DNA of 64,000 nt from an uncultured Bacteroidales bacterium. Its GTDB lineage: Bacteria > Bacteroidota > Bacteroidia > Bacteroidales > Bacteroidaceae. This document shows positions 1 to 48,845 of this stretch, in pieces. The notes beneath the pieces were generated by a model. That model was given only the letters and a program-made list of their open reading frames with translations. It ran no database searches and had not been told where the DNA came from. The DNA lies in contig CACWTR010000003.1 of assembly GCA_902763865.1 (NCBI GenBank), positions 1 to 64,000 on the forward strand, given 5' to 3'. Every line of letters starts with the position of its first letter. The stretch's first letter is position 1. The translations under genes were made by a program, and so were the position numbers.

Positions 1-44
1 AAGCTTGAAAATTGATTTTCAAAGTTTGAAAATAACTTTATGAC
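1..44. repeat. 21-bp-period TTTTC/GAAAA palindromic repeat, partial array
   Basis: The window opens inside a short array whose units have the form TTTTC-N7-GAAAA, repeating about every 21 bp. Related arrays lie at 11428-11511 and 42206-42250. The left end is cut by the window edge, so the full copy number is unknown. Confidence 0.6.
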
Positions 45-110
45 GCGAACCTCGGAGGTTCCTATTGCGGACCTCGAAAGTTCCTGACGCGGACCTCGGA
101 GAAAAGGAAA
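45..110. repeat. 22-bp tandem repeat, GCGGACCTCGGA type, 3 units
   Basis: Three consecutive 22-bp units (45-66, 67-88, 89-110) share the core GCGRACCTCGRA followed by a less conserved half. No spacers separate the units. It directly follows the 21-bp-period repeat and lies downstream of the secreted protein at 303-2447. Confidence 0.65.
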
Positions 111-152
111 AGGGACTGTGCCATAATAAACGTACATACCCTCTTATATGAT

Positions 153-243
153 TTAACCACGAATTGCACGAATTACACGAATTTATAATTAACTTACAAC
201 CTGCAGTTAAATCATTCGTGTAATTCGTGCAATTCGTGGTTAA
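153..243. repeat. Perfect 30-bp inverted repeat with 9-bp internal period
   Basis: Arms at 153-182 and 214-243 are exact reverse complements around a 31-nt loop. Each arm is a ladder of 9-bp units of the type CACGAATTR. It could form a strong cruciform or RNA hairpin and may end transcripts from the gene at 303-2447, although no clear U-tract follows. A sister element of different sequence but the same design is at 42025-42110. Confidence 0.75.
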
Positions 244-302
244 AAGCTATTGGTCGTATTATGCGCAGTACCTTTCCTGTTATGGTCGTGTGAAAGTGCC
301 CC

Positions 303-2447
303 CTATCGGAGCACTTTCTTTCCGTTCACGATGTTGATGCCCTTCTGCATCTTCTGCATGCGCTGGCCTGCGAGATTGTAGATGGCGGTCTCCTGCACAG
401 CATCCTGCACAGCAGCGGCGGGAGCGGCGATGGCGTCGATGATGGAGGTGTCAACGTAGGTGACGGTGATTGTCTGAATGCGGGCCTGCGAGGTGGCCTG
501 GTTGGTCAGGACGACCTTGCCCATGTCGCCGCTCCACGTGGCCGTGGGGCCATCCACTTCGGCTGCGGTGCCGAACTGGTCCTTCCACTCCTTGATGTAG
601 CTTTCGCCTGCTGCGGTGAGGACAATACTCTTGATGGCATATCCGTCGGCCACGGTGAGCTCGATGTAGCTGGGCTCGGTGAGTGTGGGTTCTTCACCCT
701 CGGCGCCCTTCTCTACCTTACTGCCATAAATCTTGATGTGGTTGTCGTTGGGATTGGCGTATGCTTTGTTGACGTGGAGCGTAACGACGTCGTTGCGGAC
801 GGCGGTGAACTCTCCGCCCGTGCTGGAGACGCCCTGGCCGGAGATGTCGGCATCGTTGTAAGCGAAGATGGCATCGGCATAGCCCTTCTCCTTGACAATG
901 AGGGTGAAGCTCTTGCTGTCGGCAAGGTAGGTGGCGGTCTCAGCCACGTTTGCCGTGATGACCGTTGTGCCGTAGGCTTTGGGAGTGATACGTCCGTCGG
1001 CGTCGATGGTGGCTACCTCGGGGTCGGAACTCTCGTAGGTCACGACACCGTCGGAGTTCGTGGTGAACTTGGCTGTAGGCTGGCCTTCGATATCCACGCT
1101 CTCGCTCTCTACGCTCCATGCGGAGACGGGAGCCACCTGCGAGGTCTTGAGCACGAACTCGTCGGCTGTGCGGGGTGCAATCTCCCAGACCTGGCTGTTC
1201 TTGTACCAGATGGCCACGCCGGTCACGTCATACGTCTTGCCCTCGTAGAGCTCGGGCAGCTTGATGAAGGTGCCGTAGGGGGTGATGCTGTTGTCGTCGT
1301 CATCCACGAAGACGCCGCCCGTGTAGGTGACTCCCTCGAGGCTGATGAGGCAGCCCTGCATATTCTTCTCGAGGTCGGCAACCATGACTTTCTGCGGTGT
1401 GGCTTCCCCGCCCTTGGTGACGGTGAGGCCCTCTGTGGTGGAGGTGAGGCCGACAATCTCGGCGCACTCGTTGTAGAGGGTCAGGGAGATTTGTGCCCGG
1501 CCCGTCAGTACGTCGCCCACAGCGAAGCCGTGTCCGTTCTGATAGAGCAGAATGCCGTTCCGTCCGTCGGTGAAGTAAGCGTTGCTGTTCTTCACGCCGG
1601 TGCAAATCCAGTTATTGAACTCCACGAGGACAGGCTCCTTCGCTTCAGTGGCAGCAGCGCAGAGGTCGGCAATGTTGGTGTAGGTCTTTGCAAACTGGAA
1701 CTCGACGGAAGCGACAGAGCTGGCATTGCCGGCGGCATCGTAGGCAACAGCCTTGACGGTGCAGTCGGTGCTCACCGTGAAGGGAGCGACGTAGGCGGTG
1801 CTCTCGTTGGTGGGGTCGGTGCCGTCGAGGGTGTAGTAGGCGGTCAGCCCCTCTTCAGTGCTGATTGTCACCTCCTGCGGCTCGGAGAAAGCTCCGCCTG
1901 CGGGAGAGATGACGGGCTTGGCTACAACGACGCCGCCTGTGGTGTATTCCACGGTTATCTTCTTGATGTAGAAGGCACCTTGTCCGCCAGTCATCGTCCA
2001 GGCAATGACAATCTCGCCGGAAGCGCCGCCCGTGTATTCGTAGGCGGCATTCGTGGTCTCCAGGGCCGTCGTAGCGCTGCCGTCGCCAAGGGTGTATTCA
2101 GTACCATTGACGCTGACAGCCATCGTGCCGACCAGATTCTTGCCGCGGCTGGCCTCCACCGTCACGCCGAGAATCGTGCCGGGAATGCCCTCGGTGGAAA
2201 TGCTCACGCTTTTGCAGGTTTTGGCATTCGTGCCGAAATGAGTACCCAGGTCGTTGCTGAATACGCTGACCACGCCTTCCTCCATCGCGAGGGTCCAGTC
2301 AACGCCGCTCAGCGTAAAGCTGGTTTCCGTCGTGCTCTGAGGAATGTCCGTTGCAACAAATGTGTGGGAATAAGTTTCTGCCCAGGCATTGCTCCCCATG
2401 AAGAGAAGGGACAGTACGGACAGGAAAAAGAAGGTAGTTTTTTTCAT
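303..2447 (-). CDS. Secreted multidomain surface protein with chitobiase-like, Ig-like and T9SS-like tail domains
   Basis: A 714-residue exported protein of unknown substrate. It has a clear signal peptide (residues 1-23, ending NAWA), then an N-terminal beta-sandwich-like region. Residues ~177-250 resemble the chitobiase/beta-hexosaminidase C-terminal domain (YYTLDGTDPT). Residues ~255-430 resemble an OB-fold-like module, and ~440-520 a bacterial Ig-like Big_2 domain (ATIDADGRITPKAYGTTVIT). The last ~30 residues (IYNLAGQRMQK, ending NGKKVLR) match the form of a type IX secretion sorting tail, so export through T9SS and surface display are inferred. No catalytic domain is recognisable. It is transcribed away from the regulator at 2600. 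Confidence 0.75.
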   Translation of the reverse strand: MKKTTFFFLSVLSLLFMGSNAWAETYSHTFVATDIPQSTTETSFTLSGVDWTLAMEEGVVSVFSNDLGTHFGTNAKTCKSVSISTEGIPGTILGVTVEASRGKNLVGTMAVSVNGTEYTLGDGSATTALETTNAAYEYTGGASGEIVIAWTMTGGQGAFYIKKITVEYTTGGVVVAKPVISPAGGAFSEPQEVTISTEEGLTAYYTLDGTDPTNESTAYVAPFTVSTDCTVKAVAYDAAGNASSVASVEFQFAKTYTNIADLCAAATEAKEPVLVEFNNWICTGVKNSNAYFTDGRNGILLYQNGHGFAVGDVLTGRAQISLTLYNECAEIVGLTSTTEGLTVTKGGEATPQKVMVADLEKNMQGCLISLEGVTYTGGVFVDDDDNSITPYGTFIKLPELYEGKTYDVTGVAIWYKNSQVWEIAPRTADEFVLKTSQVAPVSAWSVESESVDIEGQPTAKFTTNSDGVVTYESSDPEVATIDADGRITPKAYGTTVITANVAETATYLADSKSFTLIVKEKGYADAIFAYNDADISGQGVSSTGGEFTAVRNDVVTLHVNKAYANPNDNHIKIYGSKVEKGAEGEEPTLTEPSYIELTVADGYAIKSIVLTAAGESYIKEWKDQFGTAAEVDGPTATWSGDMGKVVLTNQATSQARIQTITVTYVDTSIIDAIAAPAAAVQDAVQETAIYNLAGQRMQKMQKGINIVNGKKVLR

Positions 2448-2487
2448 AAGCTTTGGTTTTTTGTTAGTTTGGTTTTCCTTTGATTTA

Positions 2488-2495
2488 CAAATATA
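2488..2495 (-). promoter_or_regulatory. Putative -7 element of the secreted protein gene
   Basis: TATATTTG on the minus strand fits the Bacteroidota -7 consensus TAnnTTTG, about 40 bp upstream of the start at 2447. I see no well-spaced -33 partner. Confidence 0.4.
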
Positions 2496-2548
2496 GCATT
2501 ATTTACACAAACGAAGCCACTTTAGCACAATAAAAAAACGCGAAAGGA

Positions 2549-2578
2549 TTGCATATTGGCTGAAAAGACATAACTTTG
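2549..2578 (+). promoter_or_regulatory. Putative promoter of the AraC-type membrane regulator
   Basis: TTG at 2549-2551 and TAACTTTG at 2571-2578 are 19 bp apart, fitting the Bacteroidota -33/-7 arrangement. It implies a very short leader before the ATG at 2600. It is divergent from the promoter of the secreted protein at 2447. Confidence 0.6.
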
Positions 2579-2599
2579 CAGGTATAAAACTCCCCAGAC

Positions 2600-3697
2600 A
2601 TGAGCGAAAACATACTTTTCCTGACCCTCGGCGGGTCTGCCGTAGCCCACCTCATCATAGCATCCGTGATGGCACTCTTCGCACGCCACCGCATACAGTA
2701 CCTTGCCCTGGCATGGGAGAACGGACTCTTCTTCCTGACGATGCTCGTGGCCTCCTTCTTCAGCCACACCATCGCCACGGCACATCCCGGCATCCTGCAC
2801 CCCGGAATGCTCCTGGCACTGCTCTGCGCCTGCTACCTGCAAAGCATCTATCCCCTGCACATCTCCATGCCAGGCTTCCTGCAATGGGAACGCATGATAC
2901 GCTATGCCAGCCCCACCCTCCTGATGCTTGCCATCTACATCGGAGCATCGCTCATGGGCAGCGAAATCGTCTATATCTACACTGCAAACGAACTGGTGGC
3001 AAACATCCTGACCAGCGACGTCCTGATGCGACTCTGCGCCCTCGCACTGAGCATCTGGTACATCGTGAACATCTTCCTGCTGCCACGACGCCTGGCCCGA
3101 CACGCCGACGTGCCGGGCTACCTGATCGGCTATTGCCTCGCCATGGGACTCTCGGTGGTCTTCTACACCTACATCGCCATCACCTACAACGTCACGCTGC
3201 TCGCCATCTACATCATACTCTTCACCATCCTCAACCTCTACCTCATGTTCCGGACCCTCGAGACGATAGCACTCCAGCTGCCGCGACCCGTCATCAAGGA
3301 AGTGGCAGAAGCACCTGCCGAAGAGAACAAAGAGGAGAAGTACTCGGAAGACTTCAACGAAGCCAACCTCTACCGCTTCCAGCGCATCAACTTCTGGATG
3401 CAGACGCATCGCGAAGAATGGAAGGACAGCACCTTCGGGCGCGACCGACTCTGCCAGGAGACGGGCTACAACCGCCACATCGTACTGCAAAGCATACGCA
3501 GCCAAGGCTTCAATAACATCCACGACTTCATCAGCAGCTTCCGCATAGCAGAACTGAAGCGCATGATAGCCCGCGGCGAAGTCAATTCAGCCAACGACGC
3601 GCTGGCTGCCGGCTTCGGCACCATCCAGACCGTCCGCGCCTGCTTCCTGAAACTGGAAGGAATCACCCTGGACGACTATCTCGGACATCCCGAATAA
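2600..3697 (+). CDS. Membrane-anchored AraC-type transcriptional regulator
   Basis: 365 residues. The first ~220 residues form about six or seven hydrophobic helices with little extramembrane sequence. A charged linker (~230-255) leads to a C-terminal AraC/XylS-type DNA-binding region (~265-365), with two helix-turn-helix stretches around GRDRLCQETGYNRHIVLQS and NDALAAGFGTIQTVRACFLK. The architecture suggests that a membrane signal is passed directly to DNA. It is divergent from the secreted protein at 303-2447 and convergent with the giant protein at 3879-10871, either of which could be a target, but no operator is visible. The regulator class is fairly sure; the signal is unknown. Confidence 0.75.
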   Translation: MSENILFLTLGGSAVAHLIIASVMALFARHRIQYLALAWENGLFFLTMLVASFFSHTIATAHPGILHPGMLLALLCACYLQSIYPLHISMPGFLQWERMIRYASPTLLMLAIYIGASLMGSEIVYIYTANELVANILTSDVLMRLCALALSIWYIVNIFLLPRRLARHADVPGYLIGYCLAMGLSVVFYTYIAITYNVTLLAIYIILFTILNLYLMFRTLETIALQLPRPVIKEVAEAPAEENKEEKYSEDFNEANLYRFQRINFWMQTHREEWKDSTFGRDRLCQETGYNRHIVLQSIRSQGFNNIHDFISSFRIAELKRMIARGEVNSANDALAAGFGTIQTVRACFLKLEGITLDDYLGHPE

Positions 3698-3700
3698 TCA

Positions 3701-3799
3701 AGTCAAATAGCTCATTGGGCCACATTAGACTCATTGGCCCATTTGACTCATCAGCCCCATTAACACCATTGGCCCCCATTAACACCATTGGTTCCATTA
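3701..3799. repeat. 9-bp-period intergenic array (CCATTRR type)
   Basis: About eleven imperfect 9-bp units built on a CTCATTGG/CCCATTAA theme fill the space from just after the stop codon at 3695-3697 to the terminator at 3806. One of six 9-bp ladders in this window. Confidence 0.6.
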
Positions 3800-3805
3800 A
3801 CCAAA

Positions 3806-3837
3806 AAGCCCCCTGCGGACCGTTCCGCAGGGGGCTT
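3806..3837. terminator. Bidirectional Rho-independent terminator
   Basis: A perfect 14-bp stem (AAGCCCCCTGCGGA and its complement) with a 4-nt loop, flanked by an A-run on the left and a T-rich run on the right. It can therefore serve both the convergent regulator (+) and the giant protein gene (-). The same hairpin recurs at 11614-11645 behind the paralogous giant gene. Confidence 0.85.
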
Positions 3838-3878
3838 CTTTTGTCCATCCCCTTACGGGGAGGTTAGGAGGGGTCTTC

Positions 3879-6800
3879 TTACTGCTGAGCCATCAGGTTC
3901 AGGACAGTCACGAAGTCAGCAATGTCAACCTTACCGTCGCCGTTCAGGTCGGCTGCTGCCTGATACTCGCTGGCTGCCATGATGTTCAGGACAGTCACTG
4001 CATCGGCAATGTCAACCTTACCGTCGCCGTTCAGGTCACCGCTCACACCGCCTGTACCGATGCCGTTGCCCGGGGTGACAACCACCTTAGGCATGCCGGG
4101 AATGGTATAGCGGCTGAAGGTCTCGGTGCCGCCGGATGCAACATAGAGGTTGTTGGCATAGTCGAATGCCAGACTCGTGATGCTGGTCTCGAGAACAGAG
4201 ATGTTGAACTTCGGGTTCAGGAAGATACGTCCATTCTCCATAGGCACGTAGTTGGTCTCGTAGAGGACAATCTTGCCGCTGCCCTGCGGGATGGCAATGT
4301 ACTGACCGTCGGTCGTGACAGCAATCCTGCCGCTGTTGGTCGTCAGGCTATTGTTGCCGTAGTCCTCCAGGCCCTCAGCATTGAAGTGCTTGATGGCAGG
4401 ATTCTCGGCAGAAGCTGTGACAGACTGGATGAACCAGAGGCCACCCTGACCGTCCTCGTGAATGCCGATATAGCTCGGAGTGAAGGAATATACACCGTCG
4501 AGAGGCTCGAAGTTGGCCGAGGGAGCAGCGCTCCATTCCTTAGCAGTGCCAAGGTCGTAGATAGAGCAGTTGAAGTCGGTAGAGTTGTTCTGACCGTTGC
4601 TGCGCTGTGCACCCAGAACGTACATCTTCAGGTCCTCGCCCTTGCCGTTGAAGGCTAAGCTGAGAGCCATGCGGTTCTGTTCATCTTCGCCGACATAGGT
4701 GATACCTGTAGCCTCGTCGAGTTCGCCGCCCGTGAAGACAGGCTTCCACGGTTCGTCAAGGTTGTCGGGATTGATCTCCCATACGGAGCTGTTGCTGGTG
4801 CCGGAAGAACGAGCCACGAAGAGACGACCGTCCTCGGTGAAGCGAAGATCCTTGAGGTCGAACTTGTAGCTGCCGGAGACAACGAGTGCAGAGCCTGCTG
4901 TAATCTCCTCGGGAATGGGCAGTCCGCCGTAGAAGCCGGGAGTGCCGTCGGCAGCATTGATGGGCTTGAAGTTCTGGTCGAAAGCGAAGAGTGCGCCGGA
5001 CTTCTCAGTGGAGATGTAGCCTTCGGGGTATTGTTCAGCCCACGACTCAGCGATGAGTACCTGGCCGAAGCCCTTGCTGGCAGGATTGTTGTTGACAGCC
5101 ATGCCGTAGGGAGCCCATACCTTATAGACATCGCCAACGCGGAGAACGTCGAGCGAGCCCTTGCCCGTTACGGATATCTCGAAGTTGAGAGCCTTCGGGT
5201 TGTCGCCAAGGTTGCTTGTCGGAACGGTAACAGTGTGCGTGCCAGCCGTAAGCTCTTCCTCAACAGGCTGTGCATAGCCGTTGCTGAACTTAACCTCGGC
5301 GCTTTCTGCCTCGGCATTGAGGTCGAAGCTTACGACCACGTTGCTTCCGGCAAGCTTAGCATCCAGATTGTAGGCAAAGGCATTGAGCTGCGGGTTGGGC
5401 TTCTCGTTGGTATATTTGCCTGCATAGAGATAGACAACGTCGCCGCCGAAGAGGTGAGGCGTTGCTTCCTGTCCGAGCGTCTGGAACCAGTGAGGATTGT
5501 CGCCGGTCTGTCCGTTGAGCTTCCAAGCCACTTCGCCGCTTGCGAGCTGTTCGGCTGTGACGAGTGTGCCCTGCTGACCACGGAAGAACTGAGAGACGAA
5601 GACATTGGTCGGGCTGGGAGTAGCACCGCGGGAAATCGTCTGAGAGTTGTCGCCTTCCACTCCGACATTGGTGTATTCGGAGAGGATGAGTGTGTTCTGA
5701 ATCTTGAGAGCTGCATCGGCCCAACCTGCAACGCCGCCTACGTACCAGTGCGGGTTGTCGCCCTCACCGATGATGTGAGTATTGACGATACAGTTGGTGA
5801 TGAGGCTGTTTGCACTGCCGTTGCGACCAATCAGGCCACCGGAGGAGGTGTCGCCCGAGAGGTTGGGAGCCAGGTACAGGGTGGTGGCTATCTCGCAGTT
5901 GTCGATGGTGGAAGCACCGGACATCCAGCGTGTGAGCGGACCTGTGAACTGGTGGCTGCTGTGGAACTCACCTGTCAGCTTGAAGTTCTTGACCGTTGCA
6001 TTCTGCAGTTCATAGAACAGCGTTGCGGGCTCGGCATATTCTCCAGCCGGGATGTTGGCGTCGTCGATATAGACATTGGCAAGGGTGTGGCCCTGTCCGT
6101 CGAGTGTGCCGGCAAAGATATGCACACCACCTTCGCCACGGTTGTGGCCGATGGGCTGCATGGCGATGCCTGACATGTCGATGTCGGCGGTGAGTTTGGC
6201 ACTGGCTTTCTTGTCGTGTTCACTGGCGATGGCACGATAGGCAACGAACTGCTTGGTCGTTCCGACGAGGTAGAATCCTTCTTCGTCCTTCGACGGGATG
6301 ATTTCAGCCACGTTCTGCAGTGCAGGGGGATTCTGAGCTTCCTCAAGCGTATAGTCGCCATTTTCGTAAGCGTCGTAGAGAGCGTCGGTAGCATCGTAGA
6401 GTGCTTCTATCTCGTTTTCGTCGAAGACTTCTTTACCGGTCTCTACCCAGCCGCCGGCCTCATCCTTTTCTACCAAGGCCAGGTTGTAGGATGCGATGGT
6501 TTCAATCATGTCGGAGGTGTTGTAGAGAGAGAGGTAAGCCTGCTTAGCCACGTAGATGTTCTCGAAAATAGCGGAGAACTTGGCTACGAGTTCAGCCTTG
6601 GCTTCCAGGGTCTCGGCTGCTTCGATGGCAGCAACAGCTTCCTGGAGCTCAGTCTTCAGAGCTGTGGGATAGTTGGGGGACTTGGCAAGTCCGTCGGCAT
6701 TCTTGATGGCTGTTTCCACTTCGAGTTGATATGCTCCGAGGATTGTTTCGGCACGCTTCTTCATGTTCTGGAGAACGACGTCGAATGCGGGAGCTGCTGT

Positions 6801-11079: not shown

Positions 11080-11337
11080 ATATATAATGAACATCCGCAG
11101 TCAACCGACAGTCGGCCTGCAAGGCCAGATAGCACTCAGCCCAGGGCATCGCCCTGGGTATGATGGCAGTAGTACCCTCGCCCTGAAGGGGCAAAAGAAT
11201 GCTCCCATGTAACGCTGTTGCCCCTACGGGGCGTGGGCTACGCCTCACAGGACCCAAGGCGATGCCCTGGGCTATGTTCTCATTGCCCCTTCGGGGCGCC
11301 ATCAGATAATTGCGGATATACATTATATATATATGGG
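11080..11337. repeat. Composite palindromic repeat element (~255 bp)
   Basis: A nested palindrome. The outer arms share ATTATATATAATG and ATCCGC near 11080-11100, with the complement near 11313-11337. Internally it has two CCCAGGGC...GCCCTGGG-type hairpins and two GCCCC..GGGGC hairpins in opposed orientation. It fills most of the 815-bp gap between the two giant genes. It encodes no convincing protein and looks like a dispersed non-coding repeat or REP/MITE-like unit. Confidence 0.6.
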
Positions 11338-11342: not shown

Positions 11343-11408
11343 GGCTGCAAAAGCTTCTGCAACTGGCTGCAAAAGCTTCCGCCATTGGCTGCAAAAGCTT
11401 CCGCAACG
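11343..11408. repeat. 22-bp tandem repeat, GGCTGCAAAAGCTTCCGC type, 3 units
   Basis: Three adjacent 22-bp units (11343-11364, 11365-11386, 11387-11408) share GGCTGCAAAAGCTTCYGC plus a variable 4-nt tail. The core contains the palindrome AAGCTT. No spacers. Confidence 0.7.
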
Positions 11409-11427
11409 TGTTATAAAACTATTTTCA

Positions 11428-11511
11428 AAGCTTGAAAATTGATTTTCAAACTTTGAAAATTAATTTTCATGACGTGAAAATTAATTTTCACGTCATGAAA
11501 ATAGTTTTGCA
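11428..11511. repeat. 21-bp-period TTTTC-N7-GAAAA array, 4 units
   Basis: Four contiguous 21-bp units each have TTTTC and GAAAA arms around a variable 7-nt centre. The centres of units 3 and 4 (ATGACGT, ACGTCAT) are reverse complements of each other. The same unit design occurs at 1-44 and 42206-42250. Confidence 0.7.
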
Positions 11512-21291: not shown

Positions 21292-21390
21292 TAGATAATC
21301 TAGATAATCTAGATAATCTAGATAGTCTAGAGTTTCTAGATAGTCTAGAGTTTCTAGATAGTCTAGAGTTTCTATGTAATCTAGATTATC
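21292..21390. repeat. 9-bp tandem array (TAGATAATC/TAGAGTTTC), 11 units
   Basis: Eleven consecutive 9-bp units run from 21292 to 21390. The first three are identical, then TAGATAGTC and TAGAGTTTC alternate. The array overlaps the stop codon of the GNAT-like gene (21389-21391) by two bases and ends ~27 bp before the parE start. On the sense strand it reads TAGATTATC, the same motif as the array before the U32 gene at 40669-40722. Confidence 0.85.
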
Positions 21391-22735: not shown

Positions 22736-22844
22736 CGACTCACGAGTCATCGGCCTTCGGCTCACGTGTCATTGGCCTTCGGCTCGTGAGTCATTGGCCA
22801 ACGACTCACGAGTCGCAAGCCAATGACTCACGTGTCGTTTTCAG
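22736..22844. repeat. 22-bp tandem array, ACTCACGAGTCATTGGCC type, 5 units
   Basis: Four full 22-bp units and a fifth partial one end four bases before the stop of the beta-galactosidase gene. The core alternates between CTCACGAGTC, CTCACGTGTC and CTCGTGAGTC, each followed by an R-T-TGGCC-like half. The same unit, in the same orientation, forms the array at 31983-32135. Confidence 0.8.
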
Positions 22845-31982: not shown

Positions 31983-32135
31983 GGCTCGTGAGTCGTTGGC
32001 CAGAAGCTCGTGAGTCGATGGCCTTAAGCTCGTGAGTCGTTGGCCTTAAACTCGTGAGTCGATGGCCAGAAGCTCGTGAGTCGTTGGCCAGAAGCTCGTG
32101 AGTCGTTGGCCAGAAGCTCGTGAGTCGTTTTCTGG
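31983..32135. repeat. 22-bp tandem array, AGCTCGTGAGTCGTTGGCC type, 7 units
   Basis: Six full 22-bp units (31983-32114) and a seventh partial unit. They are highly uniform: CTCGTGAGTCGWTGGCC followed by AGA or TTA. There are no spacers. It is located between the recJ stop (32157) and the recQ start (31940). The same unit type, in the same orientation, occurs behind the beta-galactosidase at 22736-22844, ~9 kb away. Confidence 0.9.
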
Positions 32136-35650: not shown

Positions 35651-36241
35651 TCATGTCTGAAAGGGCTTCTTTTGGAAAAACGAGAGGTAGTTTTCTGCCA
35701 TTGCAGAGCACAGGAAAGGCAGACTTATGCCCCGCAATTCGGCCACATTATTATATAGGTCGGCAATCGGACGCTTCTCGTCGTCCGTCTCCAGCATCAG
35801 GCGGTCCAAAGGACACAGGCGCAGACTCTCCGCATTGTGGCGCAAGCCGAAACTGACGTAGAATCCGGCACCGAGCAACGACATCAGCTGCTGCGGCTTG
35901 CCGCGGAAGCCGTGGAGCATCCACGGCATTGTGGGATGCTGCTCGCGACGCAGGCGCAGCAGGCGGTCTATGGCCCTGACACAGTGTATCACGAGCGGCT
36001 TCCTCTCCTGTTCGCTCAGCGCTATGTGCTGCCGGAAGACCGCTTCCTGCCTCTCCATAGCAGCACCGCGCACGGCATCCAGTCCGCATTCCCCCAAGGC
36101 TATTCTGCCGGAAAGGTCGGGCACGGAAAATGGTTCGTCTGCCCTCCAGGGATGAATGCCCCAAGTGTCGCAACCGTCAACGACAGCCACGACACCCGTC
36201 TCTGCAGGAACATGATGCGTATGGAAATCAATGAAGGTCAT
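35651..36241 (-). CDS. TatD-family metal-dependent hydrolase (short form)
   Basis: 196 residues, shorter than the ~260 of TatD but still with the metal-site order of the amidohydrolase family: FIDFHTHH at the N-terminus, [22 protein letters not shown] and LETDDEKRP. TatD proteins are 3'-5' nucleases or D-aminoacyl-tRNA deacylase-like enzymes; which applies here is unknown. The ATG overlaps the yidD stop (ATGA). Last gene of the LOG-DUF4271-hemD-rnpA-yidD-tatD series. Confidence 0.85.
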
Positions 36242-36468
36242 GGCACGGGATCATAGCCGCTTCCACCCCAGGGATGGCAACGCAGCAGACGTCGCAGGGC
36301 AAGCCACGAGCCCCTGAACGGCCCATGCTTGCGCAGCGCTTCCACGGCATACTGACTGCAAGTGGGCGTGAAGCGGCACGAGGGTGGCGTCAGCGGAGAG
36401 ATGAACCGCTGATAGAAACGGATGGGCAGGATGAGCACCCCTGCCAATAATCGACTTGCAGCTTTCAC
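36238..36468 (-). CDS. yidD: Membrane protein insertion efficiency factor YidD
   Basis: 76 residues. Small membrane-associated helper of YidC-dependent insertion. The family signature is complete: a hydrophobic N-terminal helix, [20 protein letters not shown] with its paired cysteines, [12 protein letters not shown], and the [20 protein letters not shown] end. It follows rnpA with a 51-bp gap holding short A/T repeats, the usual rnpA-yidD order. Confidence 0.95.
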
Positions 36469-39080: not shown

Positions 39081-39112
39081 TGTCTGAGGGGATTGTTGGG
39101 GGGTGTAGGTTT

Positions 39113-39171
39113 TATAGGACCTATAGGACTTATAAGACTTATAGGTCTTATAGGACTTATAGGACTTATAG
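39113..39171. repeat. 9-bp tandem array (TATAGGACT type), ~6.5 units
   Basis: Six uniform 9-bp units plus a partial one. The metK stop codon (39166-39168) lies inside the array, which then extends toward the LOG-family gene. Confidence 0.8.
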
Positions 39172-40422
39172 CCCGAAGGCTTTCTTTATTTTCTCTACGT
39201 AGTCGAGCTTTTCCCACGTGAAGAGCTCGACGGTAACTTCGCGTGTCTCCTGATAGAGCGACTCGTAGCGCTTGGTGACGGTGCGTGGCTCGCGGCCCAT
39301 GTGTCCGTAGGCTGCCGTCTCTTCGTAGATGGGGTTGCGCAGCTTGAGCCGCTGTTCGATGGCATAGGGGGTGAGGGTGAAGAGGTCCTTTATCTTCCGG
39401 GCTATCTCGCCGTCGGTGAGGCTGACGTGGCTCTTGCCGTAGGTATCAACGAAGATGCTGACGGGGTCTGCCACTCCGATGGCATAGCTGAGCTGTACGA
39501 GCATCTCGTCGGCCACGCCTGCTGCCACCATGTTCTTGGCGATGTGACGTGCGGCGTATGCAGCCGAGCGATCTACCTTCGAGGGGTCCTTGCCGCTGAA
39601 GGCTCCGCCGCCGTGTGCTCCCTTGCCGCCGTAGGTATCGACGATTATCTTGCGCCCGGTGAGTCCTGTGTCGCCGTGAGGTCCGCCGATGACGAACTTG
39701 CCGGTGGGGTTGACGAGGTACTTGATGCGGTCGTCGAAGAGGCTGCGGACGCGCTCGGAGCGGATGTCCTGAAGCATTCGTGGCACGAGAATCTCGCGGA
39801 CGTCGCGGGCTATGCGCTGCTGCATGGCCTGGTCGGTGTCGAACTCGTCGTGCTGGGTGCTGATGACGATGGTGTCTATGCGCTGCGGCACTCCCTGGTC
39901 GCTGTATTCGATGGTGACCTGGCTCTTGGCGTCGGGCCTGAGGTAGGTCATCTGCTTGCCTTCGCGCCGTATGTCGGCCAGCGAGCGGAGGAGGCGATGG
40001 GCCAGGTCGAGGCTGAGGGGCATGTAGTTGTCGGTCTCGTTGGTGGCATAGCCGAACATCATGCCCTGGTCGCCTGCGCCCTGCATGGTGCGGTCGCTGC
40101 GATCCACGCCCCGGTTGATGTCGGCGCTCTGCTCGTGGATGGCAGAGAACACGCCGCAGCTGTTGCCCTCGAACATGTATTCGCTCTTGGTGTAGCCGAT
40201 GCGGTTGATGACTTCGCGTGCTATGCGCTGCAAATCGACGTATGCCTTCGTCTTGATTTCGCCCGCCAGCACAACCTGTCCGGTAGTGACGAGCGTTTCG
40301 CATGCCACCTTCGAGTCGGGGTCGAAGGCAAGCAGCTTGTCGAGCACGGCATCGCTGATCTGGTCGGCCACCTTGTCGGGATGACCTTCGGAGACTGACT
40401 CCGATGTGAACAAATAACCCAT
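39166..40422 (-). CDS. metK: S-adenosylmethionine synthetase
   Basis: 418 residues. Makes S-adenosylmethionine from methionine and ATP. Motifs: [18 protein letters not shown] at the N-terminus (ATP and Mg site), the hexapeptide-type [16 protein letters not shown] near 115, and the P-loop-like [19 protein letters not shown] near 270. Slightly longer than the E. coli enzyme (384), as usual in Bacteroidota. Transcribed from a promoter ~155 bp upstream that is divergent to the U32 gene; the leader of ~145 nt contains hairpins, but no SAM riboswitch class could be recognised by eye. Confidence 0.96.
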
Positions 40423-40574
40423 AGTAGATTTACTCCTTACTTATATATATTAATAATGTATAGGGAAAGAAGTGGGTACAAATGCGTGAGGAACCCGTGA
40501 CGGTCCTCGTTTTAGCATTTTTTTCTGTGGTTGCAAGCAGCCCAAATCTATCCACATGTATTGTTTTGCGGCTG

Positions 40575-40653: not shown

Positions 40654-40668
40654 CAGCCGCAAACAAGC

Positions 40669-40722
40669 TAGTCTGTCTAGGTTATCTAGATTATCTAGAC
40701 CATCTAGTTTCTCTAGACTCTC
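40669..40722. repeat. 9-bp tandem array (TAGATTATC type), 6 units in a 5' leader
   Basis: Six 9-bp units of the form TAGNNNNTC fill the leader of the U32 gene and end 8 bp before its ATG. The sense-strand motif TAGATTATC matches the array upstream of parE. Confidence 0.75.
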
Positions 40723-40730
40723 TAAGAACT

Positions 40731-41993: not shown

Positions 41994-42024
41994 ACCACAA
42001 AGAAAAGGAGTGTCATAATTGACA

Positions 42025-42183: not shown

Positions 42184-42263
42184 GCCGACGCGATGCAAAA
42201 GTTATTTTCATGACGTGAAAATATATTTTCAAACTTTGAAAATAACTTTTATGCCGCGTCGGG
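42184..42263. repeat. Large palindrome enclosing two TTTTC-N7-GAAAA units
   Basis: Arms beginning CCGACGCG and AGTTATTTTC on the left are mirrored on the right around position ~42223. The centre holds two 21-bp TTTTC-N7-GAAAA units with the same core sequences seen in the 11428-11511 array. Confidence 0.6.
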
Positions 42264-42992: not shown

Positions 42993-42999
42993 CGCAAAA

Positions 43000-43031
43000 C
43001 GGGGCTGCCCGACCCGTGCCGGACAGCCCCG
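43000..43031 (+). terminator. Hairpin terminator after the sigma factor gene
   Basis: A 12-bp stem with one mismatch (CGGGGCTGCCCG against CGGACAGCCCCG) begins 8 bp after the stop. There is no long U-tract, so termination is probable but not certain. Confidence 0.55.
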
Positions 43032-43144
43032 CTCGCTTCGTCACACATACCCTCATCCGTCACTTTCTGTGCATAGCAGACATAATTCTTCACCCTTCAT
43101 TGATTTTATCGAGCCAAAGCTTCTTCATTCTTCATTTATTTTCG

Positions 43145-43152
43145 TACCTTTG
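43145..43152 (+). promoter_or_regulatory. Putative -7 element of the acyltransferase gene
   Basis: TACCTTTG lies only 8 bp before the ATG at 43160. The transcript would be nearly leaderless for that start, or have a ~40-nt leader if translation begins at the in-frame ATG at 43196. Confidence 0.5.
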
Positions 43153-43159
43153 CAGAACG

Positions 43160-44044: not shown

Positions 44045-44055
44045 ACAGAAGCACC

Positions 44056-44928
44056 ATGATCTCCGTCGTCGTACCGATTTATAACGTAGAGCGCTTCCTG
44101 CCCCGCGCCCTGGACAGCATCCTCAGCCAGACACACAAGGATTGGGAAGCCATCCTCGTAGATGACGGCAGCACGGATGCCAGCGGACGCATCGCGGATG
44201 ACTATGCAGCAAGAGACAACAGATTCAAAGTGATACACAAGGAGAACGGCGGCCTTTCCGATGCACGCAACGCAGGCATGAAGCTCATCCGGGGAGAATA
44301 CCTCGTCTTCCTCGATGCCGACGACTTCCTGCACCCGCAGCTCATGGCCCTCTGCCTTGAAGCAACGCTTCGGGACAACTCCGACATAGTCTGCTTCACC
44401 TACGACCGCCGCTATCGGACCATCGGACTCATCCGCCACTTCCTCCACCTCGGCGACCCTACACCGCACTACCGTTTCTACAGCAATCCGCCCTACCTCA
44501 CTACGGACAACATCTTCCAATACGCCACCGAATACTCCCGCCCCCGCGACATAGACCGCCGCTGGGCCGTGAAGCACTGCCAGGTCTGGCGCTGCATGTA
44601 CAAGACGTATGCCGTGCGCGACGTGCAGTTCATTCCCGGCATCAACTACGAGGACTTCCCCTGGTGGAGCGAAGTGATGCTCCGCATAGGCCGCTGCACC
44701 ATCCTCAACCTCCCCCTCTACTTCTACTATCCCAATCCGCAGAGCTACCTCTTCTCGGCCAACACGTCGCACAAGGCCGAGAGCCTGCACCGTGGCATCG
44801 AAGCCGCACAGCGCATCTACGCCACAGCACCAGCGGACAAACGGCAGGCCTGGGAGCGCAACTTCCTTGCCCCCTTCGAGCAGAAGCTCAGGAAGAAACT
44901 CGGCAACAAGCAGCAGAAAGAGACATGA
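44056..44928 (+). CDS. Family 2 glycosyltransferase (tandem copy 1)
   Basis: 290 residues from the ATG at 44056. GT-A fold: SVVVPIYNVERFLPRALDS at the N-terminus, LVDDGSTD, the DxD-type metal site FLDADD near residue 93, and the acceptor-side motif NYEDFPWWSE. Transfers a sugar from a nucleotide-sugar to a growing glycan, probably LPS. The start is 11 bp past the acyltransferase stop. Similar in plan and partly at DNA level to the next gene (both contain GGAAGCCATCCTCGTAGATG), so the two arose by duplication. Confidence 0.88.
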   Translation: MISVVVPIYNVERFLPRALDSILSQTHKDWEAILVDDGSTDASGRIADDYAARDNRFKVIHKENGGLSDARNAGMKLIRGEYLVFLDADDFLHPQLMALCLEATLRDNSDIVCFTYDRRYRTIGLIRHFLHLGDPTPHYRFYSNPPYLTTDNIFQYATEYSRPRDIDRRWAVKHCQVWRCMYKTYAVRDVQFIPGINYEDFPWWSEVMLRIGRCTILNLPLYFYYPNPQSYLFSANTSHKAESLHRGIEAAQRIYATAPADKRQAWERNFLAPFEQKLRKKLGNKQQKET

Positions 44929-45788
44929 ACAAGGTTTCCGTCATCATACCCATCTACAACGTGGAGAAGTATCTCCGTCGCGCCCTGGACAGCCTGCTGG
45001 CTCAAACCCACCAGGACTGGGAAGCCATCCTCGTAGATGACGGCAGCACGGACGGCAGCGGACGCATCGCCCGCCACTACTGCGACAAGGACAAGAGATT
45101 CGTCCTCGTCAGGCAGGAGAACCAAGGCCAGGGCGCAGCCAGAAACAATGCGCTGAAGTCAGCCAGCGGCGACTACGTCATGTACATGGACCCGGACGAC
45201 TCGCTCCACCCGCAGGCAATGGAGCTCTGCGTGGCAGCAGCCCTGCGCGACGGCTCCGACATGGTCACCTTCACCTACGACCACCTCTACCGCTTCCTCA
45301 ACAAGTGCTCGCACTGGCTCGGCCTGGGCGACGTCAAGCCACGCCCCAGGCACTATCGCGACTACCCATACCATGTGACGGACAACATCTTCCTCCACGC
45401 CACGGAAAGCAGCCACCCGCAAGGCATCGACCGGCGGTGGAGGGTGAAACACTGCCAGGCATGGCGCTGCCTGCTCCGGGCCGACCTTGCCAGGAAGGCA
45501 CGCTTCGCGGAAGGACTGAAATACGAGGACGTACCCTGGTGGGGCGAGATACTTCTGAACGTCAGGCGGACCACCATCACGCGCCTCCCACTCTACTACT
45601 ATTATCCCAACCCCGGCAGTTTCATCATGTCGGCAGGCAGGGAGGAACACATCCGCAGCCTTCAGGCTATCCTGAAGCAGACCGATGAACTCTACGGGAA
45701 GGCCACGACAGCGCAGCGCAACGCATGGAACGCAAACTTCAGGAACTCCTATAACAGATATCTACAGAAGAAACAGCATCGGGCATGA
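44925..45788 (+). CDS. Family 2 glycosyltransferase (tandem copy 2)
   Basis: 287 residues. The ATG overlaps the preceding stop (ATGA). Same GT-A pattern as its neighbour: SVIIPIYNVEKYLRRALDS, LVDDGSTDGSGR, MYMDPDD as the DxD-type site, and KYEDVPWWGE. Paralogue of the gene at 44056-44928, diverged enough that a different donor or acceptor is likely. Part of the acyltransferase-glycosyltransferase operon. Confidence 0.88.
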   Translation: MNKVSVIIPIYNVEKYLRRALDSLLAQTHQDWEAILVDDGSTDGSGRIARHYCDKDKRFVLVRQENQGQGAARNNALKSASGDYVMYMDPDDSLHPQAMELCVAAALRDGSDMVTFTYDHLYRFLNKCSHWLGLGDVKPRPRHYRDYPYHVTDNIFLHATESSHPQGIDRRWRVKHCQAWRCLLRADLARKARFAEGLKYEDVPWWGEILLNVRRTTITRLPLYYYYPNPGSFIMSAGREEHIRSLQAILKQTDELYGKATTAQRNAWNANFRNSYNRYLQKKQHRA

Positions 45789-46585
45789 AGAGACTCAGCA
45801 TTATCACCGTCAGTTACAATGACATCGCCGGTCTGCGCCGGACTCGCGACAGCATCCGCTCGCAAACGTTCCGGGACTTCGAATGGATTGTCGTGGACGG
45901 AGGAAGCACCGACGGCAGCAAGGACTTCCTGTCCGAGCATCAGGCGGAAACAGCATGGTGGTGCTCGGAACGGGACAGCGGCATCTTCAATGCCATGAAC
46001 AAGGGCATCGGACATGCTGAGGGCGAATACACCCTGTTCCTCAATTCGGGCGACACACTATATGCCCCGGACACCCTGAAGGAGGTGTTCGGCAGGACGC
46101 CAAGTGCCGACATCGTCTATGGCGACTGGACAGAAGCGCTGCCCAGGCACCCGGCAAAGCGCTGCCATTCCCCGGAAAAGGTGAACTGCTACACTTTCGC
46201 CGTCCGGCCTTTGTGTCACCAGACGGCATTCGTCCGTACCAATCTGCTGAAACAAAGTCCTTACGACGAAAGCTACCGCATCTGTGCGGACTGGGCAAAG
46301 TGGATTGAGCTGAGCAAGCGTGGCTGCACCTTCGAGCACGTCCCTGTCATCGTCTGCCACTTCGTGCTCGGCGGCTTGAGCTATCGCTCGGTGAAAGAAA
46401 GGAGGCGGGAACAGGAGCGCTTGCTCATGGAGTCCTATCCGGAAGACCTGGCCGAAGTCCTCATTGGCCTGACGGGAAAGGTGGCCAGGAGGCTGACCGT
46501 GATAAGAAGGCTCGTCTGGCTCTGCGTCATATTGTTGCTCGCAGTGATTGCCCTCGCCGTCTGGGCGGTCATCGTATGCCGATAG
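45785..46585 (+). CDS. Family 2 glycosyltransferase with C-terminal membrane anchor
   Basis: 266 residues, start overlapping the preceding stop (ATGA). N-terminal LSIITVSYNDIAGLRRT, VVDGGSTDGS and FLNSGDTL mark a WcaA/PGL3-like GT2. The last ~25 residues form a hydrophobic helix (VILLLAVIALAVWAVIV), suggesting membrane attachment. It ends the plus-strand operon and overlaps the convergent gene at 46569 by 17 bp. Confidence 0.85.
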   Translation: MKRLSIITVSYNDIAGLRRTRDSIRSQTFRDFEWIVVDGGSTDGSKDFLSEHQAETAWWCSERDSGIFNAMNKGIGHAEGEYTLFLNSGDTLYAPDTLKEVFGRTPSADIVYGDWTEALPRHPAKRCHSPEKVNCYTFAVRPLCHQTAFVRTNLLKQSPYDESYRICADWAKWIELSKRGCTFEHVPVIVCHFVLGGLSYRSVKERRREQERLLMESYPEDLAEVLIGLTGKVARRLTVIRRLVWLCVILLLAVIALAVWAVIVCR

Positions 46586-47459
46586 GGCCGTTGACGACGT
46601 AGTCCGCAAAGGTTCCTGGGCGTGGAGTCTGTGCAGACAACGAATTGTACTCGAGCTTCTGGAAGGCTCCTTCGGCTGTGACTTCGCAAAAGAGCTTCCC
46701 GTCAAAAGGCTCGTCGCGGTACTTCTCCCAAAAGATTTGAGTAACGTCGTGGCAAATCTTTGGCATCTGGCTGAAGAGGTCGACTACCCGAGCATTGCTG
46801 AGCACCATGTGGCGGAACAGTCTGTGGGGCAGGAAATAGTCGAATGCACGGGTGTGCTGCGCCCAGTAGTCGCGGATAATCTGCCGCCACGCACCCATGA
46901 CGGGATGGTGCGCATAGGCCCGGATGAAGCAATTCTGTATGTAGAAGTTCCATTCCTCGTCGCTCATGTACATGAAGAACGGCTCGTGGTCGATGAAATC
47001 CGGCATCGGGTGGCACATGTAGTCAGTGGCATCCATCCAATAGCCTCCGTACTTCCACAGGAGTTCGACGCGACAGAGGTCGGCAACGTGGCATGACTTG
47101 ATTCTTCCCTTCCGCCACCGGTCGAGGAAACCTGGCGGCAGGTCCACCCACTTCCCGATGCTTTCTGCGTCCAGAACGACCAGCTCCTTTCCGCTGTGCC
47201 TGCGGATGCTTTCCCAGCACGACTTCACAATCCGGGGAGCTTTGTCCTGGCCTTGCAGCCACATCGAGAAGACAAACTCGCGGGGCAAGCGCTGGGGAAT
47301 GCTCTCAGGAACGACGACGGGCATATCCCGCAGATACTGCTCGCTCAGCTCTGCTATTATCCTGTTCCGCCTGACCCAGCGTTCCCTCCTGCTCTTCCAG
47401 AACGGGACAAAGATGCGGTTGCGGCAAATCTTCTTCAGCTTGTAGCAGATGTAGTTCAT
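46569..47459 (-). CDS. Capsular-polysaccharide-type glycosyltransferase (GT32-like)
   Basis: 296 residues from the ATG at 47459, whose first base is also the last base of the preceding stop (TGATG); a GTG three bases earlier is possible. The central motif HVADLCRVELLWKYGGYWMD with ATDY is the DxD-bearing signature of GT32 and Caps_synth proteins. The N-terminus is basic without a clear membrane helix. Second gene of a two-gene minus-strand operon with the gene at 47459-48295, tail-to-tail with the previous operon. Confidence 0.8.
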   Translation of the reverse strand: MNYICYKLKKICRNRIFVPFWKSRRERWVRRNRIIAELSEQYLRDMPVVVPESIPQRLPREFVFSMWLQGQDKAPRIVKSCWESIRRHSGKELVVLDAESIGKWVDLPPGFLDRWRKGRIKSCHVADLCRVELLWKYGGYWMDATDYMCHPMPDFIDHEPFFMYMSDEEWNFYIQNCFIRAYAHHPVMGAWRQIIRDYWAQHTRAFDYFLPHRLFRHMVLSNARVVDLFSQMPKICHDVTQIFWEKYRDEPFDGKLFCEVTAEGAFQKLEYNSLSAQTPRPGTFADYVVNGPIGIR

Positions 47460-48295
47460 CACAGTATTCCCTTGAACCTTTCAGGCATCCTGACCACAAT
47501 TATCAGCTCGAACATGGCGGGTTTGTTGAGGGCGTATGGCGGACGGCACCACGTCTGGCAGATGCGGGCCAGCCGTGTCCAGCGGTCGAAGCTGCGGGCC
47601 TTCTTCTCGGTGGCAAAGCGTATAGTCCGGCTGCGCTTGTAGATGTGTTTCTGCCACCCCTGTGCCATGCGGTCCACGTCGCCCAGCCGGTCTTCCAGTA
47701 TCTGCCGGTCTGCATAGCCGAAGTGCAGGAGGTAGAGGTCGGGGGCGATGTGGAAGTTGTGCCCCTTGACGCGGTGGAACCCGCTGCCCCACCGGCAAGG
47801 CTTTGCGATGACGGATGCCTTGGTGTATCGTGTACCTATCTGCGCATAGTGACGTTGGCGGAGGAATGTCTCGTCAAAGGACAGGTCTCCCTCCTCGCCC
47901 AGCTTCTGTCCGAAGTCGAGCCCCAAGGGGGAGAGGCAGACGTCAATCTTCTGGTTCGACAGGAACTCGCGGAGCCCGATGCCCAGCCGAGGGTCAACAA
48001 CAACGTACTCGTCAGCATCCACGCCGATGACCAGGTCGTATCCTTGGGCAAGGAGTTCGGCAGCCCGTTCCGAGAGGAACTTCAGCCTGGCCTTCTCTGC
48101 CGCCACAACCTGGGTACCTATCTTGGGGTGCACGTAGGTATTTGTCCCCCGACAGAAGTCGCCGGGCACCTGGTCCTCCCCATCATAATAGATGTAGAGA
48201 TTCTCCTTGCCCAGTTCCCGCCCGTAGTATTCCACCCACTTGCGCAGGAAGAAATCGTCGTTGCGGACCATCGTCAGCACTGCTATGCGTTTCAT
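47459..48295 (-). CDS. Glycosyltransferase (GT2/GT92-like)
   Basis: 278 residues. Begins MKRIAVLTMVRNDDFFLRKW, followed by EYYG and a metal-site candidate IGVDADEYVV near residue 92; later VKGHNFHIAPDLYLLHFGY fits the Glyco_tranf_2_4/GT92-like group that acts on cell-surface sugars. A damaged copy of its first ~28 codons is found at 49084-49170. It has a well-formed promoter upstream and heads the operon with the GT32-like gene. Confidence 0.8.
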   Translation of the reverse strand: MKRIAVLTMVRNDDFFLRKWVEYYGRELGKENLYIYYDGEDQVPGDFCRGTNTYVHPKIGTQVVAAEKARLKFLSERAAELLAQGYDLVIGVDADEYVVVDPRLGIGLREFLSNQKIDVCLSPLGLDFGQKLGEEGDLSFDETFLRQRHYAQIGTRYTKASVIAKPCRWGSGFHRVKGHNFHIAPDLYLLHFGYADRQILEDRLGDVDRMAQGWQKHIYKRSRTIRFATEKKARSFDRWTRLARICQTWCRPPYALNKPAMFELIIVVRMPERFKGIL

Positions 48296-48313
48296 CTTTT
48301 ATGTTTATTTATG

Positions 48314-48345
48314 CAAAGGTACAACTTTTTCTCGCTAAACACAAA
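48314..48345 (-). promoter_or_regulatory. Putative promoter of the GT2/GT92-like gene
   Basis: Minus-strand TTTG (48345-48342) and TACCTTTG (48321-48314) with a 20-bp spacer; the -7 element is ~19 bp from the start at 48295. Confidence 0.65.
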
Positions 48346-48434
48346 TTAATTTCTGTTTTTCGTACCCTGCTCTCTTTTACCTCTGCAGGATTTGGGCAAT
48401 TTCATATAGCCAAATAATAAAAAATGTAGAAATA

Positions 48435-48466
48435 CTTGCAGGTGTAAGCACAAACCCTTAACTTTG
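48435..48466 (+). promoter_or_regulatory. Putative promoter of the small ORF at 48546
   Basis: CTTG at 48435-48438 and TAACTTTG at 48459-48466, spaced 20 bp. It points toward the 52-residue ORF starting at 48546, leaving an A/T-rich leader of ~75 nt with imperfect direct repeats (TACGGAA and TCCATAT/TCCACAT motifs). Confidence 0.55.
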
Positions 48467-48545
48467 CATTGGAATTTACGGAACACAATTCCATATTTTA
48501 CAAGAAAATACGGAATACATATCCACATATTCACACAAAAGACGA

Positions 48546-48704
48546 ATGAGTAGAATGGTAGAACGTATCCTGCAAGAAGAGCACTCCGGTGCAAAACTCA
48601 TAATCGTTTCTCTTGACGAGACCTACAGGGTTTTCAATGACGTGAAAGTGATGCCCGCCACCTATTTCCTGCATGAACTCTGGAAAGGAAACATCTATGG
48701 ATAA
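48546..48704 (+). CDS. Small hypothetical protein (52 residues)
   Basis: An uninterrupted frame from the ATG at 48546 to the TAA at 48702-48704. The product has a balanced, protein-like composition: a charged start (MSRMVERILQEEHSG), a hydrophobic strand (AKLIIVSLDETYRVF) and an aromatic end (TYFLHELWKGNIYG). There is no signal peptide. It lies in an otherwise gene-free gap inside the glycosyltransferase locus, behind a good promoter-like sequence. It could be a real small protein or the remnant of a larger gene. I do not recognise the family. Confidence 0.4.
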   Translation: MSRMVERILQEEHSGAKLIIVSLDETYRVFNDVKVMPATYFLHELWKGNIYG

Positions 48705-48779
48705 CACTTTCTTGCTATACACAAATTAATTTGCCGGTCCGTCTGCTGCAAGTCTCTTCAATACTCCACGTTGATTTTG

Positions 48780-48845
48780 TTGCACGTACATGTATGTGCA
48801 ATTGCACGTACATGTATGTGTAATTGCATCTACATGTACGTGCAA
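48780..48845. repeat. 22-bp tandem palindrome array (TGCACGTACATGTATGTGCA), 3 units
   Basis: Three contiguous 22-bp units (48780-48801, 48802-48823, 48824-48845). Each is close to a perfect palindrome centred on ACATGT. Unit three differs slightly. No spacer. Confidence 0.85.

What the first reader, a model, noticed from the sequence alone, without database searches (positions are those of the whole stretch)
1..48845. A class of intergenic tandem arrays with a 21-22 bp period and mostly dyad-symmetric units, at seven or more loci
Arrays at 1-44, 45-110, 11343-11408, 11428-11511, 22736-22844, 31983-32135, 42206-42250 and 48780-48845 have the same period (two turns of B-DNA) but largely different unit sequences; most units carry a palindromic core. 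None has spacers and none is coding. A shared period with unrelated sequences suggests a common generating or binding mechanism rather than spread of one element, for example sites for a dimeric DNA-binding protein arranged on one face of the helix.
Basis: partly seen in the sequence, partly recalled or inferred. Interest (0 to 1): 0.8.

Follow-up and report, generated by a model that had tools for sequence, protein, structure and literature searches.

The report
Species-specific 22-bp palindromic intergenic arrays
Gut bacteria of one Prevotella-like group carry many short DNA arrays between their genes, built on the same 22-base spacing but usually with a different palindrome in each species; the pattern looks like rows of docking sites for an unknown DNA-binding protein whose target sequence keeps changing.

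Summary
The arrays are real and not confined to the window. In stretches of 11 genomes of this Prevotellaceae genus, intergenic TRF arrays number 117 at period 22, against 4 at 20, 15 at 21 and 4 at 23. Ten shuffles give one period-22 array in total; 250 kb of E. coli none. The eight listed arrays fall into about five families. The families tested are species-specific: the F1 dimer has 201 sites here, none in 60 other genomes. Relatives carry other palindromes, often at the same gene junctions. In nine arrays aligned between two sister species the 8-bp dyad core changed at 4 of 249 sites, spacers at 64 of 421, with no gap inside an array. I read this as purifying selection on dyads and spacing. 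No RNA strand bias was seen; RAYT/REP and BrickBuilt-MITE hallmarks were not met. Best reading: phased operator arrays for an unidentified dimeric DNA-binding protein at transcription-unit boundaries, probably insulators or roadblocks. Binding and function are inferred; the one candidate compared, Lrp2, has a nearly invariant recognition helix. Selfish elements remain the main rival.

The parts
1..33 (.). F1 array (TTTTCA-N5-TGAAAA, 21 bp), cut by the contig start
   Evidence: sequence; window is G000:C3:1-64000
43..98 (.). 22-bp array ACGCGGACCTCGAAAGTTCCTA x2.5, next to F1
   Evidence: TRF; dyad not significant
11343..11407 (.). 22-bp array GGCTGCAAAAGCTTCCGCAACT x3.0, next to F1
   Evidence: TRF; dyad not significant
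11421..11502 (.). F1 array, four 21-bp modules
   Evidence: TRF; exact dimer matches
22739..22840 (.). F2 array at the LacZ|GNAT junction (TRF 22739-22814, further dyads read by eye to 22840); relatives carry arrays here too
   Evidence: TRF; sequence; orthologous gap g06
31984..32129 (.). F2 array x6.6 between recJ and recQ; five near relatives with both genes found have a 49-56-bp gap and no array
   Evidence: TRF
42204..42243 (.). F1 array, two modules, between the U32 peptidase and a sigma-70-type gene; relatives carry other arrays here
48780..48845 (.). F3 array TTGCACGTACATGTATGTGCAA, three palindromic 22-bp modules
   Evidence: TRF; 47 sites genome-wide

Best explanation
The arrays are operator arrays. 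Each 21-22-bp unit holds one dyad (core about 8 bp, conserved stretch about 14-16 bp) for a dimeric DNA-binding protein; typically 3-5 dyads (up to about 8) sit about two helical turns apart, so that bound dimers face one side and can join cooperatively. Many arrays lie between a stop codon and the next promoter, at transcription-unit boundaries, where a bound array would act as an insulator or roadblock to read-through. The recognised palindrome is shared by many arrays of a genome and differs between most species, so binder and sites would change together. Shown: arrays, sharp period, species specificity of the families tested, shared sites in one syntenic region, and unequal substitution of core and spacer in one sister pair. 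Inferred: the protein, cooperativity and boundary function.
For: Period 22: 117 arrays vs 4 (20 bp), 15 (21) and 4 (23) in stretches of 11 genomes. By register in nine G012/G023 arrays: core 4/249 substitutions, spacer 64/421, Fisher p=6e-10; 0-3% within 3.5 bp of the dyad, 19% at 4.5, 5-9% at 5.5-7.5, 31% at 10.5; 0 gap columns in the nine arrays vs 49 in flanks. Dyad words are concentrated in arrays of their own species (GGTTAACC in G012: 29 in arrays, 5 elsewhere, about 1 expected; CCGCACGCGG in G026: 24 in arrays, 8 in called genes, 0.1 expected). Arms covary: 2.66 of 5 paired vs 1.42+-0.14 with arms from other genomes. Sense and antisense RNA folding do not differ (38 vs 51 of 89; p=0.19). 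Shared sites: 18 of 19 vs 0 of 16 gap-genome cells, P=0.0002 without the window genome, 0.0014 with it. 86 tandem-gap arrays: median 56 bp after the upstream stop, 183 bp before the next start.
Against: No binder identified. Lrp2 has an array upstream in 5 of the 11 genomes where the script found it (a sixth, the window genome, has a 1.9-copy one), but its recognition helix is identical in seven relatives with different palindromes. Selection was measured in one sister pair only, on 9 of 16 arrays. The window genome has no clear array at three shared sites (g09, g14, g35), so a given array is dispensable. Terminator-like hairpins are commoner, not rarer, in tandem gaps with arrays (relatives 26 of 57 vs 46 of 194, p=0.002; window genome 6 of 17 vs 18 of 114, p=0.09), so arrays do not replace terminators. 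The whole-unit dyad test reaches p<=0.05 in only 39 of 148 arrays. 22 bp is not an exact multiple of 10.5. Two of the four array-free comparison gaps are divergent promoter regions.
Confidence: 0.5

Rival explanations
1. Selfish interspersed elements (REPIN- or BrickBuilt-like): each family bursts in a lineage by copying, is tolerated mainly between transcription units, then decays and is replaced by the next family.
For: The families tested are species-specific and numerous; an F2 array lies between recJ and recQ only in the window genome among six compared; G034 keeps one and two CCCTATAGGG units where G005 has four and three; a Y1 transposase gene lies about 280 bp from an F2 array in the window genome.
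Against: Dyad cores changed less than coding DNA between sisters (4/249 vs 441/7108) and arrays have no gaps; no shared flank sequence among 36 flanks of 18 G012 arrays (in other genomes some flanks are shared, the five best pairs printed being mostly neighbouring arrays); Y1_Tnp over the cut-off in 11 of 41 genus genomes (most of them incomplete) while all 11 genomes sampled have arrays; the repeats nearest that Y1 gene are CCCAGGGCRATGCCCTGGG, not array units.
Confidence: 0.27
2. RNA-level 3' UTR hairpins (terminators or stabilisers) whose stems are free to change as long as they pair.
For: Many arrays lie soon after stop codons; arms covary; strong hairpins can form.
Against: No sense-strand folding advantage; one family occurs in either orientation to the gene in G005 and G012; a fixed 22-bp spacing is not needed by RNA; in the window genome's sample 11 TRF rows lie in seven divergent gaps; Rfam at gathering threshold found only a SAM-II riboswitch in the window.
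Confidence: 0.12
3. Neutral tandem duplication by replication slippage, with a mechanistic preference for 22 bp.
For: Short, head-to-tail, intergenic.
Against: Unit sequence is shared among distant loci of a genome; modules of different palindromes (F3/F4) mix in register; no gaps and conserved cores; no period-22 array in 250 kb of E. coli.
Confidence: 0.04

Closest known systems
BrickBuilt MITE/minisatellite of Porphyromonas gingivalis (PMC4596501: abstract, passages, section 5 and part 1 of 2 of section 7 seen)
   Same: Same order; tandem short units without spacers (23 nt), intergenic, species-restricted, 19 loci. The paper also mentions 22- and 23-nt tandem repeats reported in strain W83.
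   Different: BrickBuilt has leader and tail segments, IS5-type inverted ends, up to 22.8 copies and copy-number change between strains. Here those ends are absent (0 of GAGACCTTYGCA in 1.48 Mb), G012 arrays share no flanks, 3-5 units are typical, there is no gap between sister species in nine arrays, and there are many families.
REP elements (GTAG- and CGTC-tagged; PMC3733652, passages seen)
   Same: Extragenic palindromes, many copies, mostly between unidirectional or convergent genes.
   Different: Strict 21-22-bp phasing and no consistent RAYT here; end tags were not looked for.
Mycobacteriophage stoperators (PMC6550527, passages seen; PMC9283540, search listing only)
   Same: Dispersed repressor sites that block elongation; the site sequence changes with the repressor between relatives.
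   Different: Phage genomes, single asymmetric 13-bp sites mostly in one orientation; here chromosomal palindromic arrays.
Clusters of Lrp-family sites (PMC2995911, passages seen)
   Same: 13-17-bp imperfect inverted repeats in clusters, centre to centre two or three helical turns; about 100 bp wrapped on three dimers.
   Different: The passages seen speak of clusters at single control regions; here there are many loci, and the Lrp2 recognition helix does not vary with the palindrome.

Membership tests
BrickBuilt MITE | IS5-like terminal inverted repeats GAGACCTTYGCA | tested here: not met
   0 exact occurrences, both strands, in 1,479,040 bases
BrickBuilt MITE | common leader and tail segments around the repeats | tested here: not met
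   no flank sharing among 18 arrays of G012; elsewhere 1-22 sharing pairs per genome or none, only the five best printed, mostly neighbouring arrays, with other pairs in G026 and G035
BrickBuilt MITE | short tandem units without spacers, intergenic | tested here: met
REP/RAYT system | cognate RAYT transposase flanked by the repeats | tested here: not met
   Y1_Tnp over the cut-off in 11 of 41 genomes; G005, G008, G012, G023 and G035 (72-89% complete) have arrays and no hit; one F2 array lies about 280 bp from the window genome's Y1 gene, whose closer repeats are of another kind
REP/RAYT system | GTAG or CGTC end tag | not tested
   no systematic search for tags was made
Phased operator array of a dimeric protein | dyad core conserved, spacer free in sequence but fixed in length | tested here: met
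   (one sister pair, 9 of 16 arrays)
Phased operator array of a dimeric protein | a protein binds the dyads | not testable with these tools
   no binding data
Lrp/AsnC operator cluster | regulator specificity fits the operator of each species | tested here: not met
   Lrp2 recognition helix identical in seven relatives with different palindromes, one change in the window genome; other Lrp/AsnC paralogues not examined for this
Intrinsic terminator | hairpin followed by a T tract on the sense strand | tested here: not met
   no sense-strand bias of the arrays; by a strict rule terminator-like hairpins lie outside the array in 9 of 86 tandem gaps; a looser rule that includes the array finds 26 of 57
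Phage-borne repressor sites | arrays present in phage genomes | tested here: inconclusive
   0 IMG/VR contigs for three exact patterns, 2 for the fourth, which were not examined

The most novel reading that the evidence does not exclude
A chromosome-wide system of phased operator arrays at transcription-unit boundaries, kept at the same places and the same 22-bp pitch across a genus while the recognised palindrome is replaced in concert between species: a bacterial counterpart of fast-evolving DNA-binder/site pairs, possibly acting as chromosomal insulators.
Probability: 0.38. Interest if true: 0.88.

Novelty: new variant of a known kind. Interest (0 to 1): 0.74.

Why it matters
If the arrays bind a protein, a chromosomal DNA-binding protein with roughly 200 array loci per genome (extrapolated from 34 merged loci in 464 kb, some of them low-complexity) has switched target sequence between closely related species while keeping many of its sites. 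That would make the evolution of a global binder's specificity directly testable, and could show how Bacteroidales separate neighbouring transcription units. If instead they are selfish, they are a palindromic element class with an unusual constraint on pitch.

Tried and rejected
RAYT/REP as driver: rejected. Phage origin: four viral scans, three empty; two contigs matched the fourth pattern and were not examined. Lrp1 (gene next to an F1 array): arrays in only 3 of the 26 loci L314-L339, the window genome's included, and G005, G012, G023 and G026 have only 27-31% matches. Lrp2: helix nearly invariant; the script did not find it in G026. A Bcp/AhpC-type gene with an array upstream in three species is not a regulator. 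Arrays as substitutes for intrinsic terminators: rejected. Regular spacing along the chromosome: CV below the null mean in 7 of 8 segments, individually significant in one; the segments are syntenic, so not used. Whole-unit dyad test: 39 of 148 arrays at p<=0.05, control 5 of 67; F1 5 of 11, F3/F4 5 of 5, the window's two F2 arrays not. The F1 logo failed (the seed matched AT-rich DNA) and was discarded. G029/G030 as a second sister pair had too few arrays. In one search, 7 of 16 G012 arrays had no spanning alignment and were dropped, and the core there was defined by match in one species (5/234 vs 50/372); one search repeats it by register. One search dropped sisters G023 and G034; its choice of gaps is one syntenic region. 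Literature: ten full-text searches of open papers listed nothing that describes these arrays; only BrickBuilt is close. Listings, not papers, were seen for the rest.
Full report
Setting. The window is the first 64 kb of contig C3 of a 2.91-Mb, 75-contig genome. The product of its type II topoisomerase B-subunit gene (GyrB/ParE-like; NCBIfam hits below the curated cut-offs) is 90% identical to that of a yak-cecum Bacteroidaceae MAG. That MAG's contig has the same length as contig C1 of G012, which I therefore take to be the same genome. Other genes include a lacZ-type glycosidase, recJ, recQ and SAM synthetase.

Observation. TRF and direct reading confirm the arrays. They form families: F1 (21 bp, TTTTCA-N5-TGAAAA), F2 (22 bp, CTCACGAG plus TTGGCC), F3 (TTGCACGTACATGTATGTGCAA) and two others. 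F4 (TTGCTTCATCGCGATGAAGCAA) is frequent elsewhere in the genome, and F3 and F4 modules mix in one array in register. Genome-wide with up to 3 mismatches: F3 pattern 47 forward sites, F4 135, 0 for the backwards controls.

Period. In 464 kb of this genome and 76-140 kb of each of ten relatives, intergenic periods are 20: 4, 21: 15, 22: 117, 23: 4, beside short ones such as 7: 62 and 9: 27. Ten dinucleotide shuffles of the intergenic DNA give one period-22 array in total; 250 kb of E. coli K-12 give none (one each of 19, 20 and 21); 20 stretches (259 kb) from other families of the order give one, plus three of 23. Among the 80 loci fetched with the topoisomerase gene, period 22 (36 arrays) follows 7 and 8 bp, and includes cultured Xylanibacter, Bacteroides and Prevotella strains; coding and intergenic were not separated there. 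Genes were called by my own simple script, so 'intergenic' is approximate.

Species specificity. F4 with up to 2 mismatches: 91 sites here, one each in two of 60 other genomes. F1 dimer: 201 here, 0 in 60. F2 was not searched in other genomes. Other species have their own palindromes: GGTTAACC (sisters G012, G023), CCCTATAGGG (G005, traces in G034), CCGCACGCGG (G026), CCCACGTGA (G035), AACACGTTAA (G008). In the sequence held these words are concentrated in arrays of their own species (G012 29 of 34, G023 22 of 29, G005 12 of 13, G035 22 of 23, G008 7 of 7), with an exception in G026, where 8 of 32 fall in called genes. Some kinship exists: a unit with CACG and TTGGCCAA cores recurs, by a loose template, in 56 of 127 arrays of eight genomes (some, such as F3, by chance resemblance); their arms pair at 2.66 of 5 positions against 1.42+-0.14 when arms come from other genomes. 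G034 has an F3-like family. G005 and G026 share the spacer AATGACCAACG around different cores.

Position. Downstream of the U32 peptidase gene I read an array of about 22 bp by eye in 8 of 8 near relatives, with several different units. In the syntenic region, five junctions carry arrays in nearly all relatives examined: g06 (lacZ|GNAT), g09, g14 (after yidD), g20 (U32|sigma-70) and g35 (ABC transporter|sulfatase); g08, g13, g19 and g21 do not. For five relatives after dropping two sisters: 18 of 19 cells vs 0 of 16, permutation P=0.0002; with the window genome added, P=0.0014. Caveats: this is one region; g08 and g19 are divergent promoter regions, g13 and g21 are shorter, and arrays lengthen their own gaps, so part of this is simply that permissive gaps are filled. 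The window genome has no clear array at g09, g14 and g35, and has an F2 array between recJ and recQ, where the five near relatives with both genes found have 49-56 bp and none. In 86 tandem gaps arrays lie a median 56 bp after the stop and 183 bp before the next start. In relatives, gaps of at least 100 bp number 48 convergent, 173 tandem and 79 divergent, with 24, 69 and 15 arrays; in the window genome 17, 92 and 37 with 6, 20 and 11.

Selection. Nine of 16 G012 arrays could be aligned with G023. Core substitutions by register 4/249, spacer 64/421 (Fisher p=6e-10). The profile is symmetric around the dyad but not smooth: 0-3% to 3.5 bp, 19% at 4.5, 5-9% at 5.5-7.5, rising to 31% at 10.5. Flanks 225/1197, coding 441/7108; no gap columns in the arrays against 49 in flanks. 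This is what a dimer footprint under purifying selection would leave. It rests on one sister pair.

RNA or DNA. Sense and antisense RNA of 89 arrays fold equally well (38 vs 51, p=0.19), and one family can occur in either orientation. At Rfam's gathering thresholds no window array matches a family. DNA is the more likely level.

Mechanism. A dimer per dyad, dimers about two turns apart on one face, is the simplest reading. Clusters of Lrp-family sites behave that way (PMC2995911, passages), but Lrp2 here has the same recognition helix in seven relatives with different palindromes. The role as boundary insulator or roadblock is inferred from position only; mycobacteriophage stoperators show that dispersed repressor sites can stop elongation and change specificity (PMC6550527, passages). 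Terminator-like hairpins are commoner in relatives' tandem gaps with arrays (26/57 vs 46/194, p=0.002), which marks boundaries and does not show termination by the array.

Known systems. BrickBuilt (PMC4596501) is nearest in appearance, but its ends and common flanks are not met. A RAYT-like Y1 gene exists in this genome beside CCCAGGGCRATGCCCTGGG repeats, which are distinct from the arrays. Ten searches of open papers, listed under Tried and rejected, gave no description of the arrays; subscription papers are not covered.

Verdict. A real and unusual feature, with evidence for constraint on dyads and pitch; the binder and the function are open.

Noticed in passing
window 155-244: About 90-bp inverted-repeat element with a 9-bp sub-repeat (CACGAATTA), dispersed in many copies in the genome, the best at 92-93% identity.
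   Followed up: no
window 21299-21390, 39112-39171, 40668-40724: Other arrays of 9/18-bp period (TCTAGA-containing and TTATAGGAC) of a different pitch.
   Followed up: no
window 40502-40561 (-): SAM-II riboswitch upstream of SAM synthetase 39166-40422 (-).
   Followed up: no
window 11130-11300; L013 17560-18380 (G000:C4): CCCAGGGCRATGCCCTGGG / GCCCCTTCGGGGC repeats; at C4 they lie on both sides of a Y1 (RAYT-like) transposase gene.
   Followed up: partly
window 48000-56000: Low-GC stretch (0.44 and 0.38 per 4 kb, most of the window 0.54-0.60) holding a glycosyltransferase gene at 49187-50398: possibly acquired.
   Followed up: no
window 36238-36468 (-): yidD gene (PF01809) missed by my gene caller; in relatives an array follows it, in the window genome none does.
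   Followed up: partly
L301 8231-8298 and 9647-9736 (another family of the order): Two 23-bp arrays with ACAAGYTTGT, a possible distant counterpart.
   Followed up: no
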